The notes below the pieces were generated by a model. The model had not been told where the DNA came from. It made no database searches and was given only the letters and a program-made list of their open reading frames with translations. A stretch of DNA of 64,000 nt from a bacterium HR11 (lineage in GTDB: Bacteria > Acidobacteriota > HRBIN11), in assembly GCA_002898535.1 (NCBI GenBank), contig BEHN01000008.1:1-64000 (forward strand), in the 5' to 3' direction. The translations under genes and the position numbers were made by a program. Position 1 is the first letter of the stretch. Each line of letters starts with the position of its first letter. Below are positions 836-50,095 of this stretch, one piece after another.

Positions 836-945
836 CCCTATGGGCTCATGGGTCATGGGACCATGAGCTATCAGCCATGAGCTATGAGCCATGCGCTGAT
901 ATGAGCCATGAGCCATGAGCTGATATGCGCCATGAGTTGGGGGTC
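836..945. repeat. ATGAGCY heptamer array with inverted arms
   Basis: Tandem 7-bp units of consensus ATGAGCY, with GGGCTCATGGGTCATGG on the left running opposite to CCATGAGCTATGAGCC on the right, so the block can fold on itself. There are no spacers and no open frame. The same unit recurs at 10848-10876 and 53873-53948. Confidence 0.8.
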
Positions 946-10709: not shown

Positions 10710-10725
10710 AGCGGTGTTGGGTATT

Positions 10726-10730
10726 GGGTC
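10726..10730 (+). repeat. Left target-site duplication GGGTC
   Basis: GGGTC immediately precedes the left terminal inverted repeat and is repeated exactly after the right one at 12257-12261. The target itself is a GGTGTTG/GGTATTG heptamer stretch. Confidence 0.75.
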
Positions 10731-10747
10731 TAGGAGTTACGCAGTTG
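10731..10747 (+). repeat. Left terminal inverted repeat
   Basis: TAGGAGTTACGCAGTTG, one mismatch to the reverse complement of 12240-12256. Confidence 0.78.
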
Positions 10748-10778
10748 GGATGAGTTCCATCGATGGGCTGAGCCTCCC

Positions 10779-10876
10779 GCATGTCGGCGGATGGCGAGTA
10801 GCGGATGGCGAATGGCGAGTAGCGAGTAGCGAATGGCGAATGGCCATGAGCCATGAGCTATGACCCATGAGCTAAG
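10779..10876. repeat. GRRTRGC and ATGAGCY heptamer arrays inside the insertion
   Basis: About eight tandem GRRTRGC units (GGATGGC, GAGTAGC, GAATGGC variants) run directly into ATGAGCY units. There is no inverted partner here, unlike most arrays in the window. Confidence 0.78.
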
Positions 10877-10899
10877 CCGGTCTCCAAGCGGTCGGACTC

Positions 10900-10928
10900 T
10901 TGACCAGACGGTGAAAGACGGGTAAAAT
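10900..10928 (+). promoter_or_regulatory. Sigma-70-type promoter for the tnpB-like gene
   Basis: TTGACC (10900-10905), 17-bp spacer, TAAAAT (10923-10928). It sits 27 bp before the GTG start, with GGAGG at 10942-10946 as ribosome-binding site. Confidence 0.7.
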
Positions 10929-10954
10929 GTTACCGGCCGTCGGAGGTCCCCGTC

Positions 10955-12250
10955 GTGACGACCCTGAGCCTGAAGTTCCGGTTTTCGCCGGTCCCCGAGG
11001 TGGACCGCCTGCTCGAAAAGTGCGGGGCGATGGTCCGGGCGGCCGTCGCCTGGGCCCTGGAGAACGGCAAGACGGCGACCCACACGATAGTCCAGGCGCT
11101 CTATCCGTCCTTCCGGGCTCGCTTTCCGGACCTTCATTCGACGTGGGCCCAGAAGTCGGCCCGGACGGCGGCGGCCGTCGTCCATGCCTTCCGGCGGCGG
11201 CGGCGCCGGGGGCGGGAAGGGAAAGACAAGCCCGAGGTCCGGAGGACCTGGGTCTATGTCGATAAGAGCGTCTTTCGGTGGGCGTGGGACGGGACGGAGC
11301 TGACCGTCCGCATCGCCGTCCGGCCCCACGATGGGGACCCCATCGTCCTGCGGTTCCGGCCTCACGGGAAGTACCGGAGACTCGTCGAGGCATGGGCGCG
11401 GGGCGAGTGCGTGGCCGGGGAGCCGACCCTCAGCCGGACGACCCTCATCATCCCCCTGAAGTTCCCGACCCTCCCCGTCTACGAGCCGGGGGAGGTATAC
11501 GGCATCGACAGTAACGAGCGGAGCCTGGACGGCTACGGACTCGACGGCACGGCCTGGACGGTGGACACGTCGTGGGCGGCCGAGAAGAACGCCGAGCACG
11601 ACCGGCGGGTCCGGCGGGGCACCCGGGGCAAGCAGAATCCGAGGGCGAAGAAGAAGATCGCCGAAAAGCATGGCCGGAGGCGACATAACCGAACCCGGGA
11701 ATTCTGGCATATTGTGGCATGCGCCTTCGTCTGGATGGCCCTGAGCGCAAGCGGGGCCCTGGTCCTGGAGAGGCTCCGGGGGCTGAAGGAGCGGGTCGCC
11801 GCGTCCCTGCCCAAGCGGCTCCGGCGGCGGCTTCTGAATCACTGGAGCATCCGGACGTTTCACGCCATCCTCCGACACAAGGCCCGGGTCTACGGGGTCC
11901 CCCTCCTGGAGGTGAACCTGAGGGGCACGAGCTCGACCTGCCCGGTATGCGGGGCGGGCCTAAGGGGGCGGGAAGAGCTCGTGTGTCCCCGGTGTGGCCT
12001 GGAGGGGAACCGCCACATCCTGGCGGCCTGGAACATTGCCCTGCGGGGCCGGGCGAGACTCCCCCTCGGGGGGACGGGCCGGTCCGAGGAGGGCCGAGAC
12101 CTCTTCGGGCGGCTCCAGTCGCCCCGATGGGGGCAGGGGGTCATGGGCGCTCCCGGTCGCCCCCTTCCTGTCCGGGTCGGGCTGGACGGCCGACGCCCGG
12201 GTCGGCGGCCGGCCGCCCGGACACAGGGGGAAGCGCAGGCAACTGCGTAA
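10955..12250 (+). CDS. tnpB: TnpB-like RNA-guided nuclease homolog with degenerate RuvC motif III
   Basis: 431 residues with the TnpB layout: a basic N-terminal half, RuvC I at YGIDSNERS (D185), RuvC II at LVLERLRGL (E272), a zinc ribbon C329-P-V-C332 and C344-P-R-C347, then RuvC III. Motif III reads GNRHILAAWNIA where the family normally has DRDxNAAxNI, so N352 and H354 replace both aspartates. A roughly 60-residue Gly/Arg-rich tail follows. Start is GTG 10955 with GGAGG and its own promoter. There is no tnpA partner. It may be a nuclease-dead or decaying TnpB, or a clade with different motif III; the reading frame is intact. Confidence 0.85.
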   Translation: MTTLSLKFRFSPVPEVDRLLEKCGAMVRAAVAWALENGKTATHTIVQALYPSFRARFPDLHSTWAQKSARTAAAVVHAFRRRRRRGREGKDKPEVRRTWVYVDKSVFRWAWDGTELTVRIAVRPHDGDPIVLRFRPHGKYRRLVEAWARGECVAGEPTLSRTTLIIPLKFPTLPVYEPGEVYGIDSNERSLDGYGLDGTAWTVDTSWAAEKNAEHDRRVRRGTRGKQNPRAKKKIAEKHGRRRHNRTREFWHIVACAFVWMALSASGALVLERLRGLKERVAASLPKRLRRRLLNHWSIRTFHAILRHKARVYGVPLLEVNLRGTSSTCPVCGAGLRGREELVCPRCGLEGNRHILAAWNIALRGRARLPLGGTGRSEEGRDLFGRLQSPRWGQGVMGAPGRPLPVRVGLDGRRPGRRPAARTQGEAQATA

Positions 12251-12256
12251 GTCCTA
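12240..12256 (+). repeat. Right terminal inverted repeat
   Basis: CAACTGCGTAAGTCCTA; the tnpB-like stop codon TAA (12248-12250) is inside it. GGGTC follows at 12257-12261. Confidence 0.78.
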
Positions 12257-12317
12257 GGGTCTTTATCTGCAGGTCCGTTCGGCTCAGACGAAGGGGCCAT
12301 GCCTGACTCGCCGCGCG

Positions 12318-15588: not shown

Positions 15589-15691
15589 GACGGGAATTCG
15601 GGAGTTCGGCAGATAGGCAGGTCGGCAGATAGGCAGGTGGGCAGGTCGGCAGATAGGGAAGTAGGGGATCGGTCCCGACGTCCGGCCTTCC

Positions 15692-15788
15692 CCCGGATGA
15701 GCCGACCGGCCCGTGAGCGTCCCCGTCGGTGGCCTGCCCCGGCGTCGCCAGCGACGGCGGCCATAGGGGCGGCTCGGCGGGTCGCCCC
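15692..15788 (+). repeat. 97-bp core of type 1 element, copy A
   Basis: Begins CCCGGATGAGCCGACCGGCC and ends GGGTCGCCCC. It differs from the copy at 20809-20905 at only two positions (T for C after CCGGCCCG and after CCGTCGG). Confidence 0.85.
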
Positions 15789-15844
15789 ATGCACATCGAG
15801 TTATTCGTATAGACGCCAGCCTAACGGCTGGCGCTGGGATCGAT

Positions 15845-15870
15845 GGACACCGGCATGACGGCCGGTGTCC
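15845..15870. repeat. Perfect 10-bp hairpin in element A
   Basis: GGACACCGGC and GCCGGTGTCC around a 6-bp loop. No T-tract follows, so intrinsic termination is not supported. Confidence 0.6.
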
Positions 15871-16012
15871 GGGGATAGACGCCCGTCGCCCGACCGGCCC
15901 ATCGACCGACTGCCCATCTGCCCACCTGCCCATCTGCCCATCTGCCAACCTGCCCACCTGCCGACCTGCCGAATGCCCGAATTCCCGAACTCCCGCACCG
16001 TGGGAGGCGCGG

Positions 16013-19159: not shown

Positions 19160-19512
19160 AAGTGATGGAGTGACTGGAGTGACGGAGTAGGACCCGTCTC
19201 ATCCATCCGACGGGACCGGGATCGGACCCTCGATATCCGACCCCAGACCCCAGACCGAGGACCATAGACCACGGACCATGGACCCCGGGACCCAAGCCGG
19301 CCTATGGTCTGGGGTCGATGGTCCATGGTCTATGGTCAGATTTATGAGATCGCTTGCAACGGAGTGACGAAGTGGTGAAAGGGACGGAGTGATGAAAGGG
19401 ACCGGGTAAGGGAGTCGATTTCTTCGGGTTCTCTATTTTGGAAACCCTTTTTTGACTCCATCACTCCGTCACTTCATCACTTCGTCACTTTTCTTCAAGG
19501 AGGGAATCGACG
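19160..19512. other. Nested inverted arrays (type 2 element, copy C) between atpB and atpE
   Basis: Outer arms are GTGAYGRA octamers (19162-19190 and, inverted, 19454-19492). Inside the left arm are a 44-bp head (19198-19241) and RGACCAT heptamers (19241-19287), then a short GC-rich loop with CCCAAGCCGG, then inverted heptamers (19302-19338). Further direct GTGAYGRA units lie at 19360-19415. No gene is present. AAGGAGGG at 19497-19504 is the atpE ribosome-binding site. Confidence 0.8.
19198..19241 (+). repeat. 44-bp head module of type 2 element, copy C
   Basis: Begins CTCATCCATCCGACGGGACC and ends CGATATCCGAC. It is 42/44 identical to the reverse complement of 50052-50095. Confidence 0.82.
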
Positions 19513-20695: not shown

Positions 20696-20808
20696 TTCGG
20701 GCATTCGAGGGTTCGGCAGATAGGCAGGTCGGCAGATAGGCAGGTGGGCAGGTCGGCAGATAGGGAAGTAGGGGGTCGGTCCCGACGTCCGACATCACGC
20801 CGGCGTCT

Positions 20809-20905
20809 CCCGGATGAGCCGACCGGCCCGCGAGCGTCCCCGTCGGCGGCCTGCCCCGGCGTCGCCAGCGACGGCGGCCATAGGGGCGGCTCGGCGGGTC
20901 GCCCC
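20809..20905 (+). repeat. 97-bp core of type 1 element, copy B
   Basis: 95/97 identical to 15692-15788. Upstream both copies also share GTCGG/ATCGG then GTCCCGACGTCCG before diverging (7 versus 17 bp). Confidence 0.85.
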
Positions 20906-21000
20906 TGCGTGGGACGACCCCGGGGGTCATTCTTACCTTACTACTTCCCGACCTGCCCACCTGCCGACCTGCCCATCTGCCGAACTCCCGAACTCCCGGA

Positions 21001-21029
21001 TTGCCGAACTCCCGAACCGCCGGTATCAT
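21001..21029 (+). promoter_or_regulatory. Outward promoter-like sequence toward ugd
   Basis: TTGCCG (21001-21006), 17-bp spacer, TATCAT (21024-21029), identical hexamers and spacing to the opposite end of the element. It lies 31 bp before the ugd ATG. Confidence 0.55.
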
Positions 21030-49910: not shown

Positions 49911-49970
49911 GTGACGGAGTGACGACACGCCATCTCACAAAAGGTGCCTGGAAGCGCTCGCATCCATCCG

Positions 49971-50095
49971 ACCATAGACCCCAGACCATAGACCCCAGAC
50001 CATAGACCGGCTTAGGCCCAGGGGTCTATGGTCCATGGTCTGTGGTCCGTGGTCGGATATCGAGGGTCCGGTCCCGGTCCCGTCGGATTGATGAG
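49971..50095 (-). repeat. Type 2 element, copy D: 44-bp head plus heptamer hairpin
   Basis: Read on the minus strand: head module (50095-50052), RGACCAT heptamers, loop GGCCTAAGCCGG, inverted heptamers (to 49971). Same order as copy C at 19198-19338, in opposite chromosomal orientation. Confidence 0.82.

What the first reader, a model, noticed from the sequence alone, without database searches (positions are those of the whole stretch)
10726..12261. tnpB-like gene as sole cargo of a TIR transposon with a 5-bp target duplication
The unit 10731-12256 ends in TAGGAGTTACGCAGTTG and its inverted partner (16/17) and is bracketed by GGGTC direct repeats. IS200/IS605 and IS607 elements, the usual tnpB hosts, have neither long inverted repeats nor such duplications. 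Here tnpB has its own good promoter (TTGACC-N17-TAAAAT) and ribosome-binding site, and its stop codon is in the right TIR. The target is itself a GGTGTTG heptamer stretch. This looks like tnpB captured by a non-autonomous DDE-type element that needs a transposase in trans.
Basis: partly seen in the sequence, partly recalled or inferred. Interest (0 to 1): 0.72.

Follow-up and report, generated by a model that had tools for sequence, protein, structure and literature searches.

The report
TnpB gene riding an IS701 transposon
In a hot-spring-type Acidobacteriota genome, a gene for a small RNA-guided, CRISPR-Cas12-like protein (TnpB) sits alone between the ends of a quite different, cut-and-paste transposon (IS701), has spread to at least seven places with that transposon's footprint, and appears to keep its RNA guide aligned to each landing site.

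Summary
Window 10731-12256 is a 1,526-bp element with 17-bp inverted ends (16/17) and GGGTC duplications; tnpB is its only gene. It is multicopy (7 left ends, 6 right ends here; more in a sister species). Four insertions have paired 5-bp duplications: the window's own and three matched across contig breaks. Relatives carry empty or syntenic sites for three; for the fourth, joining the flanks restores a DUF4258 frame. The ends are those of a known DDE family, IS701 (ISMesi2 group). New: (i) tnpB copies sit just downstream of a T-rich motif (TATT here, GTT/TTT in the sister) on the left flank only, mostly lacking at 12 IS701 insertions without tnpB; a TnpB target motif followed by a guide read from duplication plus right flank would give this. 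(ii) The last ~140 nt are conserved as RNA rather than codons, fitting a guide-RNA scaffold. (iii) The third RuvC acid is His in all three orthologues, so cleavage is uncertain. It parallels eukaryotic Fanzors captured by DDE transposons. I found no earlier bacterial report, but key subscription papers were out of reach.

The parts
10722..10725 (+). TATT on the left flank directly before the duplication; proposed TnpB target-adjacent motif (TAM)
   Evidence: TATT at this position in 4 of 7 left ends of this genome, background 0.0007 per position; present in the orthologous empty site of G001
10726..10730 (+). left copy of the 5-bp target duplication GGGTC
10731..10747 (+). left terminal inverted repeat TAGGAGTTACGCAGTTG, IS701/ISMesi2 type
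10786..10874 (+). left arm made of degenerate 7-nt periodic repeats of a kind scattered through the genome
10900..10928 (+). sigma-70-like promoter TTGACC-N17-TAAAAT
10942..10946 (+). GGAGG ribosome-binding site
   Evidence: sequence
10955..12250 (+). tnpB, GTG start, 431 aa; RuvC residues D185, E272 and H354 in place of the third acid; zinc ribbon C329/C332/C344/C347
12118..12256 (+). proposed guide-RNA (omegaRNA/reRNA) scaffold overlapping the tnpB 3' end; last hairpin GCGCAG-GCAA-CTGCGT uses the TIR as one arm
   Evidence: fold z -3.3; third codon positions as conserved as first and second in the 3' tail; alignment
12240..12256 (-). right terminal inverted repeat TAGGACTTACGCAGTTG; contains the tnpB stop codon
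12257..12261 (+). right copy of the duplication GGGTC; would be the first bases of the guide
12262..12276 (+). right flank; would supply the rest of the guide
   Evidence: inference from TnpB biology

Best explanation
A non-autonomous IS701-family (DDE) transposon whose transposase gene has been replaced by tnpB plus its guide-RNA scaffold. Shown: IS701-type ends, 5-bp (occasionally 6-7) target duplications, many insertions, empty or syntenic sites in relatives, a protein under purifying selection, and RNA-level conservation of the right end. Inferred: an IS701 transposase supplied in trans cuts and pastes the element. Transcription through tnpB into the right flank makes a guide RNA whose guide is the duplication plus right flank. 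TnpB recognises the unoccupied site, which reads TAM (TATT or similar) - duplication - right flank, and favours keeping or spreading the element at that locus; only insertions next to a TAM gain this benefit, so they prevail. Occupied sites are spared because the element separates TAM from target. Whether TnpB cleaves or only binds is open, because its third RuvC acid is His.
For: TIR multicopy; duplications in 4 of 4 pairable insertions of G000 and 4 in G001. Pairings checked: window site empty in G001 and G002, the murA-upstream site empty in both, the recR-upstream site syntenic in G001, and the fourth join restoring a DUF4258 ORF. The same TIRs bound IS701 transposases: ISMesi2 in Allomeiothermus plasmid pMESIL01, 1,092-bp copies, 5-7 bp duplications; transposase NF049921 E=2e-121. 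TIRs alone look enough for mobility: 425-441 bp derivatives in G001. T-rich left motif: TT at -2,-1 in 9/12 tnpB insertions vs 1/12 IS701 insertions, Fisher p=0.0014; TATT 4/7, p=9e-12 against window background and 2e-9 against AT-rich background; no mirrored AA on the right, 0/8. Codon positions: core third position 0.59-0.61 identical vs 0.82-0.83 in the tail. Fold matches Cas12f/TnpB/Fanzor2, Z 19.3/16.9/16.2. A 59% identical TnpB with the same right TIR in a phage contig.
Against: No IS701 or other DDE_Tnp_1 transposase detected in G000, G001 or G002, so mobilisation in trans is not witnessed here. RuvC-III aspartate is His354 in all three orthologues, so target cleavage may be lost. Only 12 tnpB insertion sites, 4 of them without a paired right end; the motif differs between the two species; IS701 itself shows an A/T-rich left flank (W at -2 in 11 of 12), so part of the motif may be transposase preference. 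No small-RNA or TAM-depletion data.
Confidence: 0.75

Rival explanations
1. Same transposon, but TnpB is a nuclease-dead, RNA-guided DNA-binding protein (working like TldR or Cas12m2): it binds the empty site or another target to silence or mark it rather than to cut it.
For: D to H at RuvC-III conserved over 59-73% identity with strong purifying selection on the protein (third position 0.46 vs 0.68-0.73 for window-phage); Cas12m2 with a His-Asp-Asp site binds tightly without cutting (PMC10442227). A second multicopy TnpB family in this genome also lacks the acid (Q).
Against: Known gene-drive and retention benefits of TnpB depend on cleavage (PMC11870625); His can sometimes serve in RNase H-like sites; TldR-type proteins are usually fixed at one locus, not multicopy (own knowledge).
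Confidence: 0.35
2. The left T-rich motif is the target preference of the transposase (or a preference for promoter -10 regions), and TnpB plays no part in it.
For: Insertions upstream of murA and recR lie at -10-like sequences; IS701 insertions elsewhere are A/T-rich on the left.
Against: IS701 sites show no T run (1/12); one tnpB insertion with TATT is inside a coding gene (DUF4258); G001 sites (GTT/TTT) are not -10-like; a symmetric pair of TIRs would not be expected to give a one-sided motif.
Confidence: 0.3
3. Ordinary IS200/IS605 or IS607 tnpB-only element; the inverted repeat and GGGTC are coincidental.
For: TnpB-only elements are common and most are assigned to IS200/IS605 (PMC3627910).
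Against: Recurrent TIR and duplications with empty or syntenic sites in relatives; the other tnpB family of this genome does have TIR-less, duplication-less ends and looks different.
Confidence: 0.01
4. TnpB itself is the transposase of this element.
For: No DDE_Tnp_1 or IS701_2 transposase detected in the genus; tnpB is the only gene in the element.
Against: TnpB was dispensable for transposition wherever tested (PMC3627910); the ends are those of a DDE family elsewhere; assemblies are fragmented at repeats, so a multicopy IS could be missing.
Confidence: 0.03

Closest known systems
ISMesi2 (IS701 family, Allomeiothermus silvanus)
   Same: Identical TIRs (left TAGGAGTTACGCAGTTG, right TAGGACTTACGCAGTTG), 5-7 bp duplications, last ORF ending with its stop codon in the right TIR in the same frame (..TA*)
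   Different: Encodes a DDE transposase of 333-343 aa; no tnpB; no T-run at the left flank
IS200/IS605 and IS607 tnpB elements, IS1341-type tnpB-only elements
   Same: TnpB plus guide-RNA scaffold at the right end, guide read from the flank, motif on the left
   Different: Those lack TIRs and target duplications (PMC3627910); here both are present and the mobilising enzyme would be DDE
Fanzor1/Fanzor2* in eukaryotic DDE transposons (e.g. SfAV Fanzor1; Fanzor1 in IS4-like, Mariner, Sola, MuDr elements)
   Same: TnpB homologue captured by a TIR/TSD transposon, sometimes as the only gene, with the guide RNA crossing the TIR (PMC10711439, PMC3627910)
   Different: Bacterial, IS701 donor; RuvC-II Glu in the canonical place; no DPG motif; in SfAV the duplication belongs to the scaffold, here it appears to begin the guide
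Cas12m2 / TldR
   Same: TnpB-like protein with a non-canonical RuvC site
   Different: Mobile multicopy element; substitution is in RuvC-III (DEH), whereas Cas12m2 is HDD

Membership tests
IS701-family transposon (ends) | TIR of the ISMesi2/IS701_2 group | tested here: met
   17-bp identity with ISMesi2 ends
IS701-family transposon (ends) | short target duplication; 4 bp in the 2008 description, 5-7 bp in the ISMesi2 group | tested here: met
   5 bp in four pairs of G000, 5-7 in G001; ISMesi2 5-7; 4 bp in PMC2266710
IS701-family transposon (autonomous) | encodes an IS701 DDE transposase | tested here: not met
   only tnpB inside; no NF049921 or PF01609 match in G000-G002
TnpB family | RuvC plus TNB zinc-ribbon fold of TnpB/Cas12f | tested here: met
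   PF07282 1e-15, NF040570 7e-22 but below its curated cut-off (78 vs 100 bits) while the phage relative passes (103), TIGR01766 above cut-off; fold Z 16.9 to ISDra2 TnpB
TnpB family | D-E-D catalytic triad | tested here: not met
   D185 and E272 present, third residue His354
TnpB family | guide-RNA scaffold overlapping the gene's 3' end | tested here: inconclusive
   codon-position and folding evidence; no expression data; no Rfam match
TnpB family | TAM-dependent RNA-guided cleavage | not testable with these tools
   needs biochemistry
IS200/IS605 | no TIR, no target duplication, Y1 transposase | tested here: not met
   TIR and duplication present; Y1 transposase not searched
IS607 | no TIR, no duplication, serine recombinase, dinucleotide core | tested here: not met
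   the second tnpB family of the genome looks IS607-like instead
Fanzor | DPG motif and Glu six residues before the zinc finger | tested here: not met
   GIDSNE and canonical E272; definition from PMC10711439

The most novel reading that the evidence does not exclude
The first bacterial case of TnpB captured by a DDE transposon in which the RNA-guided function has been re-fitted to cut-and-paste chemistry: the target duplication starts the guide, the TAM sits just outside it, and survival of insertions is filtered by the TAM, with a conserved D-E-H RuvC site that may bind rather than cut.
Probability: 0.45. Interest if true: 0.78.

Novelty: new variant of a known kind. Interest (0 to 1): 0.64.

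Why it matters
Until now TnpB in bacteria has been tied to HUH and serine transposases, and the move to DDE transposons was seen as a eukaryotic (Fanzor) event. A bacterial IS701 example would show that any transposon leaving a predictable junction can use an RNA-guided protein as a retention device. It gives a natural comparison, the same ends with and without tnpB, for asking what TnpB does for a transposon. The conserved D-E-H site tests whether cleavage is required at all.

Tried and rejected
PF13701 (IS1380) and PF01609 searches for the mobilising transposase in the genus: none. C4:80300, a lone TIR-like site: no transposase nearby, judged chance or relic. C14:19616: left-end relic of about 95 bp without a right end. 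Phylum-wide TIR scan: only this genus. More relatives in genome contigs and viral contigs: only the sister genome and one phage contig. Plasmid and phage tblastn: only distant TnpBs at 25-31%. Second tnpB family checked for TIRs: none. Rfam: no match. Direct syn/nonsyn count between copies was spoilt by a frame slip for L009 and not used. No paper in the held library joins IS701 and TnpB; the main TnpB census (Altae-Tran 2023) and Meers 2023 were not found in it. A family not listed by the fold comparison is not thereby excluded.

Full report
What is there. The window lies in a draft genome of 49 contigs and 2.99 Mb. A congener whose tnpB contig matches G001:C293 in length is labelled Acidobacteriota isolate JZ-1, so the window's phylum is inferred from its genus mate. 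The element runs from 10731 to 12256 (1,526 bp). Its ends are TAGGAGTTACGCAGTTG and, inverted, TAGGACTTACGCAGTTG, flanked by GGGTC on both sides. Inside are a left arm of 7-nt periodic repeats, a promoter at 10900-10928 and one gene, tnpB, GTG at 10955 to TAA at 12248-12250, the stop lying inside the right end.

It is a real mobile unit. The 17-mer occurs 14 times in the genome within 2 mismatches and never in the reversed control. Reading outward, seven sites carry the tnpB-side left end and six the right end, most at contig breaks, as expected for a repeat. Matching left flanks to right flanks gives 5-bp duplications for the window (GGGTC), C13/C29 (CTTAG), C18/C15 (ATCGC) and C14/C6 (AATGA). 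I tested the pairings. The window site is uninterrupted in G001:C113 and G002:C36, and the murA-upstream site (C14/C6) in G001:C263 and G002:C40; the recR-upstream site (C13/C29) is syntenic in G001:C350. The C18/C15 flanks joined with one ATCGC restore an 83-aa DUF4258 reading frame. In the sister genome G001 the same ends bound one full tnpB element and several 425-441-bp internally deleted copies; four G001 insertions show duplications of 5, 5, 6 and 7 bp.

Which transposon. A scan of viral contigs for the 17-mer brought in two informative records. One, from Allomeiothermus, encodes a transposase ending in that repeat and matching NCBIfam IS701_2 at 2e-121. The plasmid copies are annotated ISMesi2; complete 1,092-bp copies have left TAGGAG.. 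and right TAGGAC.. ends exactly as in the window copy, duplications of 5-7 bp, and a last codon and stop (GCG TAA) read from the TIR in the same frame as in tnpB. So the element is an IS701-type transposon with its transposase gene replaced by tnpB. G000, G001 and G002 show no match to PF01609, PF13701 or IS701_2. The enzyme must act in trans from an unassembled copy, have been present earlier, or be of an untested family; this is not shown.

The protein. TnpB is recognised by Pfam, TIGR01766 and NCBIfam (below the strict TnpB cut-off for the window copy, above it for the phage relative). An AlphaFold model (mean pLDDT 71, pTM 0.50, shallow alignment) matches Cas12f, ISDra2 TnpB and mimivirus Fanzor2 at Z 19.3, 16.9 and 16.2 over 320-346 residues. 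Orthologues are 73% (G001) and 59% (phage contig L083) identical. All keep D185, E272 and the four zinc cysteines, and all have His354 where aligned relatives have the RuvC-III aspartate. Third codon positions diverge faster than first and second (0.46 against 0.68 and 0.73 for window versus phage), so the protein is under selection.

The guide RNA. In the last 60-70 codons third positions are as conserved as the others between the two species (0.82-0.83 against 0.59-0.61 in the core), which points to selection on RNA. The right end folds better than shuffles (z -3.3, window) and ends in a hairpin GCGCAG-GCAA-CTGCGT whose 3' arm is the inverted repeat. The preceding hairpin is kept with different sequences in the three lineages. 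A transcript through it would carry the duplication and right flank as guide. This is inference; no expression data exist here.

The left motif. The bases directly before the duplication are TATT in four of seven left ends of G000 and TAT-containing in six of seven; in G001 they are GTT or TTT, with one unpaired TTC. TT at -2,-1 holds in 9 of 12 tnpB insertions and 1 of 12 IS701 insertions (p=0.0014). TATT at 4 of 7 has p=9e-12 against the window and 2e-9 against AT-rich positions. The mirrored AA is absent on the right (0 of 8). A one-sided motif is odd for a transposon with symmetric ends but is the arrangement of a TnpB TAM followed by its target. The caution is that IS701 insertions are A/T-rich on the left too, the sample is small, four left ends lack a paired right end, and the two species differ.

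Proposed working. IS701 transposase moves the element; insertion makes the 5-bp duplication; the tnpB transcript reads into the right flank, so each copy's guide describes its own empty site; TnpB recognises TAM plus duplication plus flank, which exists only in unoccupied copies of the locus. In IS200/IS605 elements such recognition leads to cleavage and a gene-drive or retention effect (PMC11870625). Here cleavage is uncertain because of His354, so a binding-only role remains open.

Comparison. Bao and Jurka state that TnpB-only bacterial elements lack TIRs and duplications, and describe Fanzor1 in eukaryotic IS4-like, Mariner, Helitron, Sola and MuDr elements (PMC3627910). Yoon et al. describe Fanzors captured by DDE transposons and the SfAV Fanzor-only element with TIR and TSD (PMC10711439). 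The present element is a bacterial counterpart. IS701 in the 2008 description has 4-bp duplications (PMC2266710), whereas the ISMesi2 group here has 5-7. I rate it a new variant of a known kind. My literature check covers only openly licensed papers.

Noticed in passing
window 861-936, 10786-10874, 15606-15970, 19239-19490, 20713-21023, 49970-50054 and others: Intergenic regions are full of degenerate 7-, 8-, 14-, 16- and 24-nt periodic arrays (e.g. GGCGAAT, CCATGAG, GACCATA, GGCAGATA); one 7-nt type also fills the left arm of the element and matches dozens of places genome-wide.
   Followed up: partly
G000 C24:205-1299, C5:5028-6122, C7, C16, C22, C17, C2, C18, C36 (L049, L154-L162): A second multicopy tnpB element of about 1.53 kb with constant ends (GGGTTGGCAACAGC ... 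GGTGAAACGG), no TIR and no target duplication, IS607-like; its TnpB has Gln where the RuvC-III Asp should be.
   Followed up: partly
L083:9909-11201 (IMG/VR 3300021591): A 59% identical TnpB with the same right TIR in a phage contig; the left TIR seems to have lost its first 12 nt (AGTTGG remains after TTAT-ATATA), and ATATA follows the right TIR.
   Followed up: partly
L086:6509-6580: A 72-bp IS701-type miniature element (two perfect TAGGACTTACGCAGTTG ends) flanked by AACAAC repeats in a phage contig.
   Followed up: no
G001 C11:3238-3662, C70:2222-2647, C72:4792-5232, C90:2670-3108: 425-441-bp deletion derivatives that keep about 100 nt of the left end and about 320 nt of the right end, including the putative guide-RNA scaffold, while the tnpB frame decays.
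   Followed up: partly
G001 C70 and C72 (L065, L066): Two copies share nearly the same left flank but have different right flanks, suggesting recombination between copies or a chimeric assembly.
   Followed up: no
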